From NCBI RefSeq assembly GCF_001898805.1, contig NZ_MKVJ01000021.1, forward strand, positions 238,506 through 302,505: a stretch of 64,000 nt of DNA. Reading direction: 5' to 3'. This DNA is from Leifsonia sp. 71-9. GTDB taxonomy: Bacteria; Actinomycetota; Actinomycetes; Actinomycetales; Microbacteriaceae. Every line of letters starts with the position of its first letter. Position 1 is the first letter of the stretch. Shown here in pieces: positions 4,723 to 49,708 of the stretch. The translations under genes and the position numbers were made by a program. The notes beneath the pieces were generated by a model. That model saw nothing but the letters and a program-made list of their open reading frames with translations, did not search any database and had not been told where the DNA came from.

Positions 4723-7358
4723 TGGCCGATCACCGCGACCCGGCGAACGGAGACGGCGACGACGCCGAAGCGCCGCCGAGCTCTGCTGCGCCCGGAGCGG
4801 AGGAGCCGGAGTTCGGCAGCCCCGAGTGGCTGTTCCGGGAGCTGGGCACGCAGCCCGAGGTCGTCGAGCCCGACGAGCCGGAGCCCGCGCCCCTGTCGCG
4901 TCGTGCACGTCGTGCCGCCGCCGCGGAGCCCGTCGAGCCGAGCGAGCCGACCGCGCCCGCCGATCCGGGGGATGACGCCGAAGGGACCGGTCCCCAGGCG
5001 GAGCCGGCCGCGGGACCCGCGCCGTTCACCTGGAACCTGACGCCGGGAGCCGGCGAGGACCCGCTCGTGGTGAACACCTCGTCGAAGCCCGTCGAGCCCG
5101 GGGTGCCGCTGGTGCCCGCGGTGCCGGTGGAGGCGTCGGGGCCCGAGGGCGCGGAGGCGGAGCCGGAGTCGAGCGTGCCGGTTGAGCCGAGCGTGCCGGT
5201 CGAGCCGAGCGTGCAGGAGCCGACTTTGCCGGAGCCGACGCTTCCCGTCGAGCCGAGCCAGCCTGGCCCGACCGTGCCGGAGCCAACGCTCCCCGGTGCA
5301 CCGAGCCTTCCGGAGCCGACGTTGCCCGTTCAGCCGAGCGTGCCCGAACCGGCGGAGCCCGAGCCTGCTCTTCCCGAGCCTCCCCGATTCAAGGCGCCGG
5401 TCTCGGAGCCCACTGTCCCGGTGGTCCCTGTGGTCCCGGGGCTTCCGGAGCCCCCGACCGTGCCGCCGGTCGCCGCGGAGACGCCCGCCGCCTCGGAACC
5501 GCTCGTGCCGCCGGTGGCGGCCGAACCGCCCAGCTTCCTCGCGTCGCTGCGAATGCCCAAGCCTCCCGAGTGGGACGAGCCGGCCGCACCCGCCGAGTCG
5601 ACCGCCCCGGCCCCGCAGGCCGCCGACGGGCAGCAGCCCGGCGGCGAGCAGGATGACACCGCGCCGGAGGAGCCGCAGGGCCACGGCCTCGCAGCGCTCC
5701 TCGGATACGGTGCGCCCGCCTCTGATGCCCCGTCCTCCCGCTCGGTGATCGGCGACACGACCGGCATCATCCCCATTGTCCCCGGATCCCTCACGCCGCC
5801 CGCACCCACCGTGCTGCCGCCCGCGACCGTGCTGCCCCCGGCCACTCCTCCTCCCGCCGCTGCGGAGCCGCCCGCCGCCCCACTGCCTCCCGTCACGCCT
5901 CCGCCGGTGGTCCCGCCCGCGTTCGCAGCCCCGACCCCGCCGGCCGAGCCGGTGCTCCCGCCGCCGCACGCCGCGGACCTCGTCGAGCCGGCGCCCGACA
6001 GCGCAGGTGTGCCGACAACGAAGCTCGACACGTCCGAGATGGCTGCCCTGCTCGCCGCCCGCATCGGCGACCCGGACCCGCTCGCGCCCGTCACTCCCGT
6101 CGAAGCGCCGCCCGCGGCCGCCGCGGCCGAGCCGACCACGGTTCTCCCGGTCGTCGAGTCCGTGTTCTCGGAGTCGGTGCCCGTCGCGCCCGAGCCCGCC
6201 GCCGATCCGCTCGACGCGGAGTCCGACCAGCCTGAGGATGAGGCGGAGCCGGACGACGGCATCGCCGCACTCTTCGGCGACGTCGCCGAGCCGGAGGCGG
6301 AGGACGAGCCCGAAGCCGACCTCGAGCCCGAACTCCAGCCCGCGTCCGACACCCCTCCCGCGTCCGACACCCCTCCCGCGTTCGCGGCCCCCGCTGACCC
6401 GGTCCCCGCTGACCCGGTCCCCGCCGACCCGGCCACCGCCGAGCCCTCCCCCGCCGACACCATCCTCTTCCCCGAACAGGGAGCCGCCGAGCCGAGCGCG
6501 GCGATGGAGGGCCCGCAGCTCACCGAGCCGTTCACGGAGCCCTTCTCCGCGCCGTTCACCGGCCCGCTGACCGTGCCGGAGGAGACCCTCCCCGCGCCGG
6601 CCTTCGCCGCCGACCCCACGGTCGTGATCCCGTCCGCGGCGACGCCGCCGATCGCCCCGCCGCCCGAGCTCCCGGCGGACGTGCCCGGCAGCCCGACCAC
6701 GTCCGGCGGCGGCCCCGGCGACACGACGGGGACCACCCCGCCGGAGCGTCCGCGCAACCCGCGCAACAACCGCATCCTCTTCATCGTGGCCGGTGCGCTC
6801 GCGGTGATCCTTGTGCTGATCGGCCTCTTCGCTCTCGGCACGCGCCTGCCCTCGCTCTTCGGAGCGTCCGCGTCGAGCCCGAAGGCCTCCGGGTCGACGT
6901 CCCCCTCGGCGACCCCGACGCCGACTCCCACCCCGACGCCCACGGTCACCCCGAAGCCGGCGGCCCCCGCCGCGGCCGGCGTCGCCGCGTGGGATGCGCT
7001 GGGCGGCGGCGAGTGCATCGAGCCGTACACGACGCCCTGGGCGGAGTCGTTCACGGTGGTCGACTGCGCGGCGCCGCACACCGCGCAGATGGTCTACACG
7101 GGCATCCTGAACCCGGACATCGCGGCCCCCTACCCGGGCGCCGACGCGCTGGGGCAGCAGATCAACGGCCTGTGCACCGCGCCGGGCGTGATCGATCTGA
7201 ACGCCGCCGCGGCGTACACCGGTCTGCAGGTGCAGGGCACGTTCCCGGCGACCGAGGAGCAGTGGAAGTCCGGGCAGCGCGCGTACTACTGCTTCGCGAC
7301 CCGCTCGACGGGCGAGCCGATGACGTCGTCGGTCGCGGGGCCGGGCCCGACCGGCTGA
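4722..7358 (+). CDS. Very long proline/glutamate-rich membrane protein with septum-formation domain
   Basis: The 878-residue product has about 680 residues of disordered cytoplasmic sequence rich in Pro, Glu, Ala and Val, including degenerate VEPS and PTLPEP repeats around residues 145-230. A single transmembrane helix follows at about 684-706. A TP-rich spacer then leads to a C-terminal domain of about 110 residues with conserved Cys (GGECIEPY, VDCAAPH, CTAPG, YYCFAT) matching the Septum_form family. The GTG overlaps the pyrE stop. Members of this family are linked to division or envelope work mainly by name, so function is inferred. It ends one base before the convergent DUF4303 gene. Confidence 0.8.
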   Translation: MADHRDPANGDGDDAEAPPSSAAPGAEEPEFGSPEWLFRELGTQPEVVEPDEPEPAPLSRRARRAAAAEPVEPSEPTAPADPGDDAEGTGPQAEPAAGPAPFTWNLTPGAGEDPLVVNTSSKPVEPGVPLVPAVPVEASGPEGAEAEPESSVPVEPSVPVEPSVQEPTLPEPTLPVEPSQPGPTVPEPTLPGAPSLPEPTLPVQPSVPEPAEPEPALPEPPRFKAPVSEPTVPVVPVVPGLPEPPTVPPVAAETPAASEPLVPPVAAEPPSFLASLRMPKPPEWDEPAAPAESTAPAPQAADGQQPGGEQDDTAPEEPQGHGLAALLGYGAPASDAPSSRSVIGDTTGIIPIVPGSLTPPAPTVLPPATVLPPATPPPAAAEPPAAPLPPVTPPPVVPPAFAAPTPPAEPVLPPPHAADLVEPAPDSAGVPTTKLDTSEMAALLAARIGDPDPLAPVTPVEAPPAAAAAEPTTVLPVVESVFSESVPVAPEPAADPLDAESDQPEDEAEPDDGIAALFGDVAEPEAEDEPEADLEPELQPASDTPPASDTPPAFAAPADPVPADPVPADPATAEPSPADTILFPEQGAAEPSAAMEGPQLTEPFTEPFSAPFTGPLTVPEETLPAPAFAADPTVVIPSAATPPIAPPPELPADVPGSPTTSGGGPGDTTGTTPPERPRNPRNNRILFIVAGALAVILVLIGLFALGTRLPSLFGASASSPKASGSTSPSATPTPTPTPTPTVTPKPAAPAAAGVAAWDALGGGECIEPYTTPWAESFTVVDCAAPHTAQMVYTGILNPDIAAPYPGADALGQQINGLCTAPGVIDLNAAAAYTGLQVQGTFPATEEQWKSGQRAYYCFATRSTGEPMTSSVAGPGPTG

Positions 7359-45232: not shown

Positions 45233-46888
45233 TCAGCCTCGCTCGGCCCGGCGGCGCCGCCAGGAGACGGTGGCGGCGAGCGCCAGTCCCAGCGCGATCA
45301 GGGCCGCCGCGGCGGCGAGCGGTGTCACAACGTCGGACCCCGTGTGGGCCAGAGACCCGATCGGGGCAGCAGCGGCGGGCGTCGCTCCCGGAGCCGGGGC
45401 CGGCGCCGCGGGCGTGCTCGGGGGAGTGCCGCCGGCGTTCGGCTGGGCCGGTTCGGTCGGGGTCACGACCGGGCGGACGAACCCGAAGTCCAGCGTCAGG
45501 TCCGCGGCGCGGTTCGTGGTGAGGTCGCCGGACGTAGCCGCCCAGGTCGAGCTGTCGACGGCCCGGTCGGAGCCGGCGCCGGCCGTGGTCGGCGTGAGTC
45601 CGGTCAGAGCCTGGGCCGAGGCCGCACGGTCGATCGTGACCGTGTAGTGCTGCCCGGCCGGGAGAACGGGCAGCCCCGGGAAGAGGTAGTGGCCGTCGGC
45701 ATCGGTGGTCGCCGGACCGACCGGCGCACCGCTCACGTTCGTCACGGGGCCGCCGTCCGGTCCGGTGAGCACGAGCACGACGCCGGGGATCCCCTGCTCG
45801 CCGGTGCTCTGGAGGCCGTCCCGGTTCGTGTCGAGCCAGACGAAGTCGCCGACGGAGACGCTCTGGTCGCCGTCGCCGGAACCGCCGGCCGAGGTGCGCT
45901 TGATGGTGGAGGTCTTGGTCACCGTCGTGCCGGGGTAGCTGATCGTGACCGCGTTCGAGTAGGTGCCGAGACGCTGGTCCGTGATGGTCCCCGTGTAGCG
46001 GATGTCGACGAACTCGCTGGCGTGCACCGCGTCGAGCACGACGTGGAGGCCGGCGGCCGTGCACGACACCGTGTACCGCGACGGGTCGACCGGGGTGCTC
46101 GGCGTCCCTCCGGCCAGGCTGGTGCGGGCGGTGACGGTGATCGAGGGGCAGTCGATCGCGCTCCCGGCGCCGATCGTGTCGACGACGTCGACCGGCCCGG
46201 CGTACCCGGTCTGATCGCCCGGCAGCTGGACGACCCAGGAGATGTTGCTCGACGGGTCGCGGGTGCCCTCGTACGATCCGTCGGTCCAGCCGGATCCCTT
46301 CCACGCACCGCGCGAGGTCGGGACCGGCTGCGGTCCGCAGTTCACGGTGCACGGCGTGGGAGTCGGCTTCGGGGCGATCGTGACGGTCGTCAGGGTCGAG
46401 CCGAACGTCAGCTGGACCGGACCGCCGGTCTCGGTCACGGTGGTGTGATCCCATTGCGCCGTGAAGTGGCCGGTGCCGGCGACGTCGTCGTGGGTCGCCA
46501 CGTAGTCGGTGAGGGTGAAGACCGCGGTCCGCCCGCTCCAGGCGGCGGTCGCGATCGGGGTGCCGTCCGGAGCGTCGAGGCTGAAGCGCGCGAGGCTCGC
46601 GGCGGCCAGCTCGGGCGGCAGCATCAGCGAGAAGGTGTCGCCGGGGGCGCTGCCGTCGGGGACGGCCCAGTCGAAGCTCAGGACGAGCTTCTCGCTGTAG
46701 CCGTAGGAGGACTTGTCGGTCGTGACGTTCGAGATGGCGCCGGGGATCTCGGCCGCGCCGGCCGGAGCCGTGGCGACGAGCAGGCCGCTGACCGCGAGGA
46801 GGCCGGCGAGGAGCGCGGCGACGAGGCGGGCGGGACGGGTGGTGGAACGGGTGCGCGCGTTCGGGTCGCGCGCGGCGGTGCGATGCAT
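45233..46888 (-). CDS. LAHTG-anchored surface protein with SdrD B-like domain
   Basis: The 551-residue protein starts with a signal peptide (Arg-rich, then LVAALLAGLLAVSGLLVATA). Two Ig-like adhesin regions (about 45-335) follow, then an SdrD B-like repeat (SVGDFVWLDTNRDGLQSTG, about 355-470) and a Pro/Ala linker. The C-terminal sorting signal is LAHTG followed by a membrane helix and RRRRAERG. LAxTG is recognised by class E sortases. ATG 46888 has GAAGGA upstream. It is divergent from a membrane-anchored sigma factor with a large palindrome between them. Confidence 0.85.
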   Translation of the reverse strand: MHRTAARDPNARTRSTTRPARLVAALLAGLLAVSGLLVATAPAGAAEIPGAISNVTTDKSSYGYSEKLVLSFDWAVPDGSAPGDTFSLMLPPELAAASLARFSLDAPDGTPIATAAWSGRTAVFTLTDYVATHDDVAGTGHFTAQWDHTTVTETGGPVQLTFGSTLTTVTIAPKPTPTPCTVNCGPQPVPTSRGAWKGSGWTDGSYEGTRDPSSNISWVVQLPGDQTGYAGPVDVVDTIGAGSAIDCPSITVTARTSLAGGTPSTPVDPSRYTVSCTAAGLHVVLDAVHASEFVDIRYTGTITDQRLGTYSNAVTISYPGTTVTKTSTIKRTSAGGSGDGDQSVSVGDFVWLDTNRDGLQSTGEQGIPGVVLVLTGPDGGPVTNVSGAPVGPATTDADGHYLFPGLPVLPAGQHYTVTIDRAASAQALTGLTPTTAGAGSDRAVDSSTWAATSGDLTTNRAADLTLDFGFVRPVVTPTEPAQPNAGGTPPSTPAAPAPAPGATPAAAAPIGSLAHTGSDVVTPLAAAAALIALGLALAATVSWRRRRAERG

Positions 46889-47207
46889 GACGGTCCTTCG
46901 TTCGGGTTCGGACGGTCCTGCGCACGCCGGACGGCGCCTGCCGGTGGCCGGCGGGCACTGATCGGGCGGACGGGGTTTCGGGTCTCCCCGGGTCGCGCCT
47001 TCGGGTGGCGGACCGCTCGGAGCGCGCTCGGGTGTGCGCTCGGAGAAGGGACGGGGCAGTGCGCGGATCATGACGCGATTCGCGCGAATCGATCGAAATC
47101 GGTCGAGTCGCGTCATGATCCGGCCTCCTCCGCGTCTCTTGGATGCGGCGCTCCAGCCGCCTCCCTCCTTCCCGACCCAGCGACCCGACTCACGATTGAG
47201 AAGCCCG
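46889..47207. promoter_or_regulatory. Divergent intergenic region with large palindrome
   Basis: This 319-base region separates the surface protein and the sigma-factor gene. Arms GGATCATGACGCGA (47065-47078) and its reverse complement (47108-47121) flank a perfect 14-base palindrome GATTCGCGCGAATC (47077-47090). It is the only A+T-rich stretch here and probably contains operators and promoters for both genes. Repeats of GCGCTCGG lie at about 47016-47043. No further gene is supported. Confidence 0.65.
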
Positions 47208-49496
47208 ATGTCCCCTCGCGACCCGCAGCGTGCGCAGCCCTCCCGGCGCCCGCTGCTCCGTCGCGCGCCCCGGCCCGAGCCCGTGGACGAGGTCTCCGAC
47301 GGCGACCTCGTCGAGCGGTCCCGGTCGGGGGACGAACGCGCCTATGCGGAGTTGTGGCGCCGGCACTCCCGCGCCGGCCTCGCCGTTGCGCGGTCGGCGT
47401 CCTCGAGCATCGACCCGGACGATCTGGTCGCCGAGGCGTTCACGAAGATCTTCCAGGCGGTCCAGAACGGCAAGGGCCCGCAGGTCGGCTTCCGCCCCTA
47501 TCTCTTCACGACCATCCGCAACCTCGCCGCGTCGTGGGGCAGGGACCGCAAGGAGACCCCCCTCGAGGACGCCGAGACCATCCCGGACCCCGAGACCACC
47601 GAGTCGACGACCCTGAAGGCGCTCGACCGCTCGCTGACGGCGCAGGCCTTCCGCTCCCTCCCGGACCGGTGGCAGGAGGTGCTCTGGTACTGCGACGTCG
47701 AGCAGCTGAGCCCGGCGACGGTCGCCCCGCTCCTCGGCCTCGCGCCCAACAGCGTCTCCGCGCTCGCCTACCGGGCGCGGGAGGGGCTGCGCCAGGCGTG
47801 GATCCAGGCGCACCTCCAGTCCCTCGACGAGGACTCGGAGTGCCGGTGGGTGACCGACCGGATGGGCGCCTACACGCGGAACAAGCTCGCCACCCGCGAC
47901 ACCGTGCGGTTCGAGAAGCACCTCTTCTCCTGCGCCCGCTGCACCATCGTGCTCGGCGAGGCCGAGGAGGTCGGCTCGCGCCTCGCTCTCATCGTGCTGC
48001 CCCTGACCGTCGGGGCCGGCGCTGCCGCCGCGTACGCGGCCTGGATCCAGGGCGGCCACAACGCCGTCGCGGCGACCGCCGGAGCTGCGACCCCCATGCC
48101 GTCCTCCGTCTCGAGCGCCGTCTCCTCCGCGGGCGCGTCCGGCGGCACGGCCGCGGGCGGCGCGGCGAGCGGGGTCGCGATCGCGGGCTGGACGACGGGA
48201 GGCGCACTCCTCGCCGCCGCGGCGGTCGCCGGAACCTTCGTGCTCGGACCACAGCTGTTCCCCTCCAGCGGCGACCACGGGCCCTCGGCCCCGATCGTCG
48301 CGGCCGCCCCTCCGTCGTCGGCCGGGGGAGCGCCGGGTGGCGTGGCGAGCGGCCTCCCCCAGACGCCCGTCGTCGCTCCACCCGCGAACCCGCCGGTGAC
48401 CCCGCCCGCGACTCCGCCCGCGCAGGACGCGCCCGCCGACCCGGCCCCGACCGCACCGTCGACTCCCGCCGCACCGAAGACGCCCGCCGGCCCCGCGACG
48501 CCCGTCGCGCCGACGAAGCCGACCACGCCCACGAATCCGACGAATCCGACGAACCCGACGAACCCGCAGCCGCCGCTCGCGCCCGTCGTCACGTCGCCGT
48601 GGGATGCGACGCGCGCCACCTCCGCCACGTTCGTGGACATCGCAGGCACCGGCACCCCGGGCGCCGTCGTCTCGGTGGTCGCGCAGCGCGCAGGCACTGC
48701 CCGCGCCGCCGCCACCTCCACGGGTACCGGCGCCGCCTCCGCCACGGGTACCAGCGCCGCCTCTGCCGCCCCGGTCCCCGCCACCTCCACCACCCCGAAC
48801 GCCTCCACTGCCTCCACGCCCCTCGGCACCGCGACCGTCGATTCCGCCGGCACCTGGGCCCTCACCGCCGACCTCTCCGCACTGACCGACGGCGCGTGGA
48901 CGCTCGTGCTCGTCCAGGCGACGACGGCCGGCTCCTCCGCGCCCACCGTGCTCGGGCTCATCGTCGACCGGACGGCGCTCCCGCCGGTGATCACGTCCGT
49001 CGACACCGGCTCCGGCGACCTCGCCGGCCGGATGGCCCCGATCGTCTCCGGGACCGCCGAGCCCGGTGCCAGCGTCGTGGTCTCCGACGGCGACCGCCCG
49101 CTCGCGACGGTGACGGCCGACGCGACCGGAGGCTGGAGCACCGGGGAGCTGATCCTCGCCTCCGCGAACTACTCCCTCACCGCGCGCCAGACGGATCCGG
49201 CGGGCAACGTCTCCGAGCCGTCTGCGGTGGTGAACGGCACCGCGAGCGTGCCCGGTGTGCTCGCGGTCGGAGCGCCCCTCTCCGTGATCCTCATCGTGCA
49301 CGACGCCCCGGGCGCGACGGTCGAGGTGTGGGTGGACGGCCTCTCGACCGGCAGGACCATCACCCTCGACGACAGCGGAAACGGCTACACGGCGTTCGTG
49401 CTGGAGCCGGGCGAGCACCGCGTGGGCGCGGTCGTCGTCTCCGGCGACCGGCACGGCGTGCTGGCCGACGCGTTCGTCCGCGTCAGCCGCCCCTGA
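47208..49496 (+). CDS. Sigma factor fused to zinc-finger anti-sigma, membrane helices and Ig-like domains
   Basis: The 762-residue protein begins with sigma region 2 (about 30-110) and region 4 (about 140-200). A zinc-finger follows with Cys212 and HLFSCARC (His238, Cys242, Cys245), the HxxxCxxC signature of ZAS anti-sigma domains. Hydrophobic segments lie at about 258-280 and 322-347. A Pro/Thr-rich linker (about 350-465) with NPTNPTNP repeats then leads to three Ig-like modules (about 465-762). One chain therefore joins promoter recognition, its probable inhibitor, and an external sensor. ATG 47208 was chosen as the first start giving a normal sigma N-terminus. Confidence 0.82.
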   Translation: MSPRDPQRAQPSRRPLLRRAPRPEPVDEVSDGDLVERSRSGDERAYAELWRRHSRAGLAVARSASSSIDPDDLVAEAFTKIFQAVQNGKGPQVGFRPYLFTTIRNLAASWGRDRKETPLEDAETIPDPETTESTTLKALDRSLTAQAFRSLPDRWQEVLWYCDVEQLSPATVAPLLGLAPNSVSALAYRAREGLRQAWIQAHLQSLDEDSECRWVTDRMGAYTRNKLATRDTVRFEKHLFSCARCTIVLGEAEEVGSRLALIVLPLTVGAGAAAAYAAWIQGGHNAVAATAGAATPMPSSVSSAVSSAGASGGTAAGGAASGVAIAGWTTGGALLAAAAVAGTFVLGPQLFPSSGDHGPSAPIVAAAPPSSAGGAPGGVASGLPQTPVVAPPANPPVTPPATPPAQDAPADPAPTAPSTPAAPKTPAGPATPVAPTKPTTPTNPTNPTNPTNPQPPLAPVVTSPWDATRATSATFVDIAGTGTPGAVVSVVAQRAGTARAAATSTGTGAASATGTSAASAAPVPATSTTPNASTASTPLGTATVDSAGTWALTADLSALTDGAWTLVLVQATTAGSSAPTVLGLIVDRTALPPVITSVDTGSGDLAGRMAPIVSGTAEPGASVVVSDGDRPLATVTADATGGWSTGELILASANYSLTARQTDPAGNVSEPSAVVNGTASVPGVLAVGAPLSVILIVHDAPGATVEVWVDGLSTGRTITLDDSGNGYTAFVLEPGEHRVGAVVVSGDRHGVLADAFVRVSRP

Positions 49497-49514: not shown

Positions 49515-49708
49515 CACCGGAGGAGATCCCGCGCGGTTCGCCCTGCATCTCCTCCGTTCCCTGCCCTTCTCGCGCGCGTCGCGGTCGGCCCCCTCCGTTA
49601 CCGACGCCGGCTTCACCGGAGGAGATAGCCCGCGGCTCGCCCCGCACCTCCTCCGTTCCCTGCCCTTCTCGCGCGCGTCGCGGTCGGCCCCCTCCGTTGC
49701 CGACGCCG
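49515..49708. repeat. Tandem 95-bp repeat (99-bp period) with internal hairpins
   Basis: The intergenic region 49497-49839 holds two near-identical 95-base copies (49515-49609 and 49614-49708). Each begins with CGGAGGAG and contains its reverse complement about 25 bases later, forming a stem. Beyond them, 49709-49750 is a CCGCCACCC microsatellite. No gene is supported. The stems may terminate the sigma-factor transcript. Confidence 0.75.

What the first reader, a model, noticed from the sequence alone, without database searches (positions are those of the whole stretch)
47208..49496. One-chain sigma factor, anti-sigma zinc finger, membrane helices and external Ig-like domains
Sequence shows sigma regions 2 and 4, then HxxxCxxC typical of ZAS anti-sigma domains, then two hydrophobic segments, a long Pro/Thr linker and Ig-like modules. 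In the usual arrangement sigma and anti-sigma are separate proteins. Here release would need cleavage or a conformational change transmitted through the membrane, so an external contact could directly switch transcription. The neighbour is a sortase-type surface protein.
Basis: partly seen in the sequence, partly recalled or inferred. Interest (0 to 1): 0.75.

Follow-up and report, generated by a model that had tools for sequence, protein, structure and literature searches.

The report
Membrane-tethered sigma factor beside adhesin gene
An actinobacterium (Leifsonia) carries a transcription switch, its likely inhibitor, a membrane anchor and a probably outside-facing Ig-like part on one protein chain; shared promoter sequences suggest that the switch turns on its own gene and genes for surface adhesins.

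Summary
Window 47208-49496 (+) is one intact 762-aa ORF in a Leifsonia genome: ECF sigma regions 2 and 4, an Hx3Cx2C zinc anti-sigma finger, two hydrophobic segments, a Pro/Thr linker and Ig-like domains. 23 of 28 genus-level genomes (own included) have such a fused frame, so it is no assembly join. The layout is known: Streptomyces ECF52 (SCO4117) has the same order but ends in a carbohydrate-binding domain, and cleavage models are in print.

New here: (1) charge bias and conservation suggest that only the second hydrophobic segment spans the membrane (Ig outside); two spans would leave the Ig part inside. (2) A promoter, CGTCATGA-N14-CGTCTCTT, forms a divergent twin before this gene and the sortase-type adhesin beside it; a strict pattern has 14 sites in 28 genomes (reversed control 0), 9 at fused-sigma loci, 3 before unlinked adhesin-like genes, 2 unclear. 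(3) Leaders behind such promoters are enriched for hairpins with an ACCCGAA loop.

Best reading: membrane-held sigma, released by an outside cue, driving itself and adhesins. Zinc-finger packing, promoter recognition and release are untested or undecided (models pTM 0.37 and 0.45). New variant of a known kind.

The parts
47208..49496 (+). Fused ECF sigma / zinc anti-sigma / membrane / Ig-like protein, 762 aa (P0001)
47355..47552 (+). Sigma region 2, aa 50-115
   Evidence: Pfam PF04542
47643..47783 (+). Sigma region 4, aa 146-192
   Evidence: Pfam PF08281 (under its cut-off), NCBIfam sigma70-ECF over its cut-off
47841..47942 (+). Zinc anti-sigma finger (zf-HC2), aa 212-245, Hx3Cx2C at 238-245
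   Evidence: H238, C242, C245 invariant in 15 sequences
47976..48050 (+). Hydrophobic segment 1, aa 257-281, conserved like the sigma and zinc parts; probably not a span, sits where helix 4 of class I anti-sigma domains would be (inference)
   Evidence: helix-4 role from PMC7406223 passages
48180..48260 (+). Hydrophobic segment 2, aa 325-351, likely the single membrane span, N-side in
48261..48587 (+). Pro/Thr-rich linker, about aa 352-460
48630..49493 (+). Beta-rich C-terminal part, read by eye as three Ig-like domains, aa about 475-600, 600-675, 675-762
47111..47140 (+). Putative promoter CGTCATGA-N14-CGTCTCTT before the fused sigma gene
47046..47075 (-). Putative promoter CGTCATGA-N14-CGTCCCTT before the adhesin gene; with the + copy it makes the 42-nt, 76% inverted repeat
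45233..46888 (-). Sortase-anchored MSCRAMM-like adhesin (Big_8, SdrD_B, LAHTG), 551 aa; start chosen by my own gene caller
46996..47010 (-). Hairpin CGCC-ACCCGAA-GGCG in the adhesin leader
46853..46873 (-). Hairpin GCGCGCG-ACCCGAA-CGCGCGC just inside the adhesin coding sequence

Best explanation
A membrane-held one-protein sigma switch. At rest the zinc finger and the conserved hydrophobic segment after it hold the ECF sigma domain next to the inner face of the membrane; one helix (segment 2) crosses it, and the Pro/Thr stalk and Ig-like domains stand in the cell wall as sensor. A cue there (contact, wall stress or a ligand) leads to cleavage within or beside the membrane or to a conformational change; the freed sigma directs RNA polymerase to CGTCATGA-N14-CGTCTCTT promoters, that is to its own gene (positive feedback) and to the divergent sortase-anchored adhesin. 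Shown by sequence: the domain order, its conservation, the twin promoter-like repeat, its recurrence at fused-sigma loci and before adhesin-like genes. Inferred: that these are promoters and that this sigma reads them, the topology, inhibition by the zinc finger, the cue and the release step (cleavage seems likelier, by analogy with IutY, where it is reported as shown, and with the model proposed for ECF52).
For: Domain order and intact ORF; fused frames in 23 of 28 genus-level genomes, own included. Segment 2 flanks in 46 of 49 proteins (window's own included): 60 K/R to 8 D/E in the 20 residues before, 27 to 71 in the 20 after; in a set thinned to 27, of 26 compared, net charge is higher before than after in 22, equal in 4, lower in 0. 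Mean pairwise identity: segment 1 56%, zinc finger 49%, sigma 2 58%, segment 2 only 29%. Strict pattern: 14 sites in 28 genomes, reversed control 0; 4 directly before a fused sigma gene, 2 before an adhesin gene that precedes one, 3 divergent from one, 3 before unlinked adhesin-like genes, 2 unclear. Pfam of the three unlinked targets: Big_8; CshA repeat/Big_9; pAdhesive_15. In 199 family genomes 30 sites, control 0: 13 at fused-sigma loci (10 before the gene, 2 divergent, 1 just behind a sigma frame judged by eye), 3 before surface proteins (two of them already in the genus count; L227 by eye). Sortase-anchored proteins are 19 of 182 genes within two genes of fused sigmas, 5 of 460 others (Fisher p 2e-7; loci are related, so p is only indicative).
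Against: No confident model of the zinc finger on the sigma. No binding or expression data: another of the 24 sigma-region-2 matches of the genome could read the promoter. 27 of 47 fused loci had no strong site (score 16 or more) in the 300 nt scanned (in some the start call was off, e.g. L009, or the site lies before an upstream gene), and 14 of the 23 genomes with a fused frame have no strict site. The own-genome paralogue and its kin carry the site only on the opposite strand, pointing into a nagA-like gene. Strong matrix sites also occur in stretches around stand-alone sigmas, away from the sigma gene (L068 22.3, L065 18.4). Of the 30 family-level sites 5 lie in or at the edge of conserved coding sequence and 9 are unexplained. 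In its own genome the strong sites are just the two of this intergenic region. The window protein has no charges in the linker between the segments, so the topology argument rests on relatives.
Confidence: 0.67

Rival explanations
1. Two-span hairpin: both hydrophobic segments cross the membrane, so the Ig-like domains are cytoplasmic and the protein does not sense the outside through them.
For: Segment 1 is nearly as hydrophobic as segment 2 (best 19-residue Kyte-Doolittle mean 1.4-2.0 against mostly 1.6-2.7); a review gives one to two helices for such fusions (PMC8999054 passages).
Against: Basic residues lie before segment 2 and acidic ones after it; segment 1 scores worse in most rows on the (recalled) Hessa scale and is conserved like a functional domain; C-terminal Ig-like, Laminin_G_3 and NPCBM domains and Pro/Thr linkers are usually secreted (general knowledge); 5 of the 26 thinned relatives compared have two cysteines after segment 2.
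Confidence: 0.15
2. The C-terminal part is only an adhesin or wall anchor; the zinc finger is a relic and the sigma works constitutively from the membrane or is controlled only at transcription.
For: C-terminal domains change freely between relatives (Ig-like, Laminin_G_3, NPCBM, ricin-type, none recognised) while sigma and zinc finger mostly stay.
Against: Zinc ligands H238, C242, C245 invariant in 15 relatives; segment 1 and zinc finger conserved nearly as the sigma.
Confidence: 0.12
3. The twin promoter is read by another sigma factor; the fused protein is a target, not the reader.
For: 24 sigma-region-2 matches in the genome; the site also occurs without a fused sigma next to it.
Against: Strict sites concentrate at fused-sigma loci across genera; the 5 genus-level genomes without a fused frame have no strict site, though 14 of 23 with one have none either; none of 20 stand-alone relatives has a strong site upstream; in one clade (L088, L089) the sigma operon and a nearby adhesin share the same changed form CGTCATAA-N14-GATCTCT.
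Confidence: 0.2
4. Frameshift or assembly join of two genes.
For: None found.
Against: Same single ORF in separately sequenced genomes.
Confidence: 0.01

Closest known systems
ECF52 (SCO4117 of Streptomyces coelicolor) and ECF48/ECF53 fused sigma factors
   Different: Ig-like domains instead of NPCBM; sortase-anchored adhesin neighbours; other promoter (SCO4117 motif in print: CSGYN-17bps-SRHA); separate place in the tree, deep support weak. SCO4117 itself was not compared; ECF48 and ECF53 were not compared by sequence
IutY of Pseudomonas putida (ECF243)
   Same: Sigma and membrane anti-sigma on one chain, released by proteolysis (PMC8999054 passage)
   Different: Gram-negative iron-starvation cell-surface signalling; not compared by sequence here
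Class I (ASDI/ZAS) anti-sigma factors such as RsiW, ChrR, RskA
   Same: Anti-sigma domain, often with Hx3Cx2C and a membrane helix behind it (PMC7406223 passages)
   Different: Separate proteins; here no separate helix 4 is recognised, a hydrophobic conserved segment stands in its place (inference)
SigI/RsgI of Clostridium thermocellum
   Same: Outside binding domain controls a sigma factor across the membrane (recalled; papers seen only in the listing)
   Different: Two proteins, other sigma family, cellulosome genes (recalled)

Membership tests
ECF sigma factors | Regions 2 and 4 only | tested here: met
   Foldseek matches to E. coli sigma-E, AlgU, SigW chains
Class I anti-sigma domain (zinc type) | Hx3Cx2C across helices 2 and 3 | tested here: met
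   HLFSCARC aa 238-245; zf-HC2 5.8e-9
Class I anti-sigma domain (zinc type) | Helix bundle binds sigma 4, helix 4 binds sigma 2 | tested here: inconclusive
   pTM 0.45 for aa 21-282, segment after the finger poorly modelled
ECF52 | Sigma, zinc finger, transmembrane region and Pro-rich extension on one chain | tested here: met
   (membrane part by hydropathy only); definition from PMC5826349 passages
ECF52 | C-terminal carbohydrate-binding domain (smart00776/NPCBM in SCO4117) | tested here: not met
   Ig-like Big_13/Big_6, no NPCBM at E up to 1; two Streptomyces-like relatives do have NPCBM
ECF52 | Grouping with ECF52 in the ECF classification | not testable with these tools
   group models not held; own tree keeps the 6 Streptomyces-like rows apart, support weak
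Sortase-anchored MSCRAMM-like adhesin (neighbour) | LPXTG-like signal, hydrophobic stretch, basic tail, Big_8/SdrD_B domains | tested here: met
   but the generic TIGR01167 anchor model stays below its cut-off (12.1 of 15.9 bits)

The most novel reading that the evidence does not exclude
A surface-sensing regulon with two layers. Fused transmembrane sigma factors of Microbacteriaceae drive themselves and sortase-anchored adhesins from one promoter type, and the transcripts carry an RNA element, hairpins with the fixed 7-nt loop ACCCGAA (one copy often close before the start codon), read by an unknown RNA-binding protein or small RNA, in the style of CsrA. The paralogue loci make, from the same promoter type, a divergent RNA without a conserved reading frame that carries these hairpins and could be a decoy for that factor.
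Probability: 0.3. Interest if true: 0.82.

Novelty: new variant of a known kind. Interest (0 to 1): 0.6.

Why it matters
Fused sigma/anti-sigma proteins of this layout are known in Actinobacteria, but the passages I saw name one studied ECF52 member (SCO4117), whose cue and release are open. Here the gene pair supplies a sensor of Ig type, a clear candidate promoter and a compact predicted output (its own gene and an adhesin) that can be tested. It suggests that such proteins let a cell feel a surface and answer with the adhesins for it. The ACCCGAA hairpins, if real, point to an RNA-level regulator of surface proteins that I found no description of.

Tried and rejected
Assembly or frameshift artefact: rejected. 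Stand-alone sigma plus separate anti-sigma as split versions of the same protein: among the up to three called genes on either side of 21 stand-alone relatives the script flagged no Hx3Cx2C protein as a partner (the one flagged next to L103_8 is the fused gene of that locus, and L072_4 is itself fused), so no natural split pair was found. Tree to decide whether the fusion came once or was lost: deep branches weak, long branches meet; undecided. Zinc finger on sigma by AlphaFold: two models, both without confident domain placement. Looser promoter patterns do not discriminate: GTCAYGAN{14,15}CGTCY gave 18 hits in the own genome (reversed control 1), 15 of them of the GTCACGA form; GTCATGAN{14,15}CGTCY hit 27 of 28 genomes, all five without a fused frame among them (control 2 in all). 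The promoter matrix was trained on 14 (later 19) sites of the same loci, the window's among them, so its counts are descriptive; the strict pattern with reversed control is the cleaner test, though its letters too were chosen after seeing the sites. A divergent small protein in the paralogue loci: no conserved frame seen by eye. Rfam on 701 nt of the intergenic region: no match at E up to 1. Literature: in the rows listed by the searches I saw no title or abstract start on Ig-bearing fused sigma factors or on this promoter; the word ACCCGAA is in 0 papers of the held library; many subscription papers (for instance the ECF re-classification, as far as I know) are not held.

Full report
Check of the observation. 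The ORF at 47208-49496 (+) starts with ATG and encodes 762 aa without a stop. Pfam finds sigma region 2, sigma region 4 (under its cut-off), zf-HC2 and Big_13/Big_6; NCBIfam sigma70-ECF covers aa 45-197 over its cut-off. HLFSCARC at aa 238-245 is Hx3Cx2C. The best named match is L. aquatica DSM 20146, 94% over the sigma/zinc part. One search gave 16 loci; 14 (L009-L022) carry the sigma/zinc part on one chain with a long C-terminal part (L018 is cut by its contig end), and two weak ones (L023, L024) were dropped. Of 28 genus-level genomes (own included) 23 match the query nearly end to end at E under 1e-70, in frames of 510 aa or more, one with an internal TGA; G004, G011, G014, G023 and G025 do not. 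The own genome has one paralogue, 54% identical, at C10. In 296 genomes drawn over the phylum 19 match an alignment of the sigma/zinc part at E up to 1e-22.

Topology. Of 49 fused proteins (window's own included) 46 were scored: L072_4 was left out beforehand, two were not parsed, and L018, which is truncated, was counted although its 'segment 2' is not one. The 20 residues before segment 2 hold 60 K/R and 8 D/E, the 20 after it 27 and 71. After thinning at 85% identity to 27 proteins, 26 were compared (L018 dropped): net charge is higher before in 22, lower in none, equal in 4. Segment 1 (0.56 mean pairwise identity) is about as conserved as sigma 2 (0.58) and more than the zinc finger (0.49), segment 2 (0.29) hardly more than the linkers (0.26). 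I therefore read segment 2 as the one span and segment 1 as part of the anti-sigma unit, in the place where class I anti-sigma domains have helix 4, which binds sigma 2 (PMC7406223, passages). This is inference; in the window protein itself the linker has no charges, so the signal comes from relatives.

Structure. The full-length model has mean pLDDT 69.8 and pTM 0.37, with confident beta-rich stretches from about aa 475 to 760 that I divide by eye into three domains; its best PDB matches are tandem FnIII/Ig chains, among them the adhesin SiiE and an ice-binding adhesin. The aa 21-282 model has pTM 0.45; its sigma part matches sigma-E, AlgU and SigW chains taken from anti-sigma complexes, but with whole-chain TM-scores of about 0.3-0.5 only. 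Whether the finger packs on the sigma is open.

Promoter. The intergenic region holds a 42-nt inverted repeat, 76% complementary, which resolves into two divergent copies of one promoter-like element: + strand 47111-47140 CGTCATGA-N14-CGTCTCTT before the fused gene, - strand 47075-47046 CGTCATGA-N14-CGTCCCTT before the adhesin. The + copy is kept in L009, L010 and L078; L010 and L078 have other upstream neighbours. The adhesin copy is kept in L009 as CGTCACGA-N14-CGTCCCTT. A matrix scan of 300 nt upstream gave scores of 16 or more in 20 of 47 fused genes (window apart) and 0 of 20 stand-alone relatives (the matrix was trained on 14 of these sites). The strict pattern CGTCATRA-N14-CRTCTCTY has 14 hits in 28 genomes and none for the reversed control. 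By place: before a fused sigma gene in G000, G001, G002 and G022:C13; before an adhesin that precedes a fused sigma gene in G008 and G016; divergent next to a fused sigma gene in G005, G012:C3 and G013; before unlinked genes in G012:C4, G022:C9 and G022:C19, which Pfam reads as Big_8, CshA repeat/Big_9 and pAdhesive_15; unclear in G005:C2:13667 and G022:C28. The five genomes without a fused frame have no strict site, but neither have 14 of the 23 with one. In 199 family genomes there are 30 hits in 21 genomes, control 0: 10 before a fused sigma gene, 2 divergent from one, 1 just behind a sigma frame judged by eye (L219), 3 before surface proteins (L168 and L172, also in the genus count, and L227, judged by eye), 5 in or at the edge of conserved coding sequence (three in one and the same gene, two at a sigma/anti-sigma-like pair), 9 unexplained. 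With up to 2 mismatches the own genome has 5 sites (control 1), the best two being this pair: the predicted regulon here is small.

Surface-protein link. LPXTG/LAXTG proteins (motif, hydrophobic stretch, basic tail) are within two genes of the fused sigma in 18 of 48 loci; 19 of 182 such neighbour genes against 5 of 460 other genes in the same stretches and the window (Fisher p 2e-7). Loci are related, so the p-value is only indicative; two of the 5 others also lie at fused loci (L088_6, and L102_4, whose fused gene my gene caller missed). Some pairs are operon-like (L091, L095, L096 adhesin first; L099, L101 sigma first). The paralogue clade (L077 in the own genome) has no such neighbour in that count.

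Known families. ECF48, ECF52 and ECF53 are described as C-terminal fusions with zinc finger and one to two membrane helices, expected to be freed by proteolysis (PMC8999054, passages). SCO4117 (ECF52) has zinc finger, membrane region, Pro-rich part and carbohydrate-binding domain; a truncated version and cleavage models are discussed there (PMC5826349, passages). Relatives from 7-10 Mb genomes of one unnamed genus, which I take for Streptomyces by size and domain, carry NPCBM in both tested (L181, L183) and show both hydrophobic segments. The window protein lacks NPCBM, so I call it ECF52-like, not ECF52. Others end in Laminin_G_3 or Ricin_B_lectin or in nothing recognised (in the ricin-type one Pfam found no sigma domain): the outside part is exchanged while the switch is mostly kept.

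RNA element. ACCCGAA occurs 177 times in about 1.67 Mb (both strands) of the loci used; 73 copies lie within 250 nt behind the 115 promoter-like sites (2.54 per kb against 0.106 overall) and none in the 250 nt before them; 41 of the 115 sites have at least one. Of 102 distinct copies outside same-strand genes, 14 are closed by perfect stems of 4 or more pairs, mostly with different stem letters (two differ in one outer base only), against 0.86 expected when flanks are shuffled (largest of 2000: 5); 0 of 35 copies inside genes are. ACCCGAA had 18 such hairpins in 510 kb, none of 40 shuffled loops more than 2. The window's adhesin leader has copies at -118, -95 and -19 and one at +22 of its start; the sigma leader in the window has none. 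In the paralogue clade the hairpins sit in the divergent RNA. Related loci inflate these counts, and the sites used are those of the descriptive matrix; still the link is strong and was not sought beforehand.

Verdict. The protein is real and complete, of a known but little-studied kind, with another sensor type and a testable small regulon. Confidence 0.67 in the overall reading; cleavage as the release step is by analogy only.

Noticed in passing
window 46853-47010 (-); L077 about 6711-6733 (+); L085, L086, L087, L088, L093: Hairpins with a fixed ACCCGAA loop behind the CGTCATGA-N14-CGTCTCTT promoters; stems differ in sequence but pair. Candidate RNA element with an unknown reader.
   Followed up: partly
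L077, L079, L080, L083, L085, L087, L090, L092 (paralogue loci): The promoter points away from the sigma gene into the nagA-like gene (name recalled), giving a possible divergent RNA without a conserved frame: candidate small or antisense RNA.
   Followed up: partly
stand-alone sigma relatives in L058-L075 and L103-L108: 18 of 21 stand-alone relatives end in Ala-Ala, which recalls ClpXP degrons; AntA is named as ClpXP-degraded in PMC8999054 passages, its AA tail is recalled. Control by degradation instead of a fused inhibitor?
   Followed up: no
window 49515-49708: Two 99-bp tandem copies, 92% alike, just behind the fused gene.
   Followed up: no
L103-L108, L069, L070, L075: In 9 of 9 loci of this clade a short gene (63-95 aa as called, mostly 93) behind the fused sigma gene has its own copy of the promoter motif (scores 15.4-23.6).
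   Followed up: no
L094 (G027): The fused gene of this 2.6-Mb genome is interrupted by a TGA, perhaps decaying.
   Followed up: no
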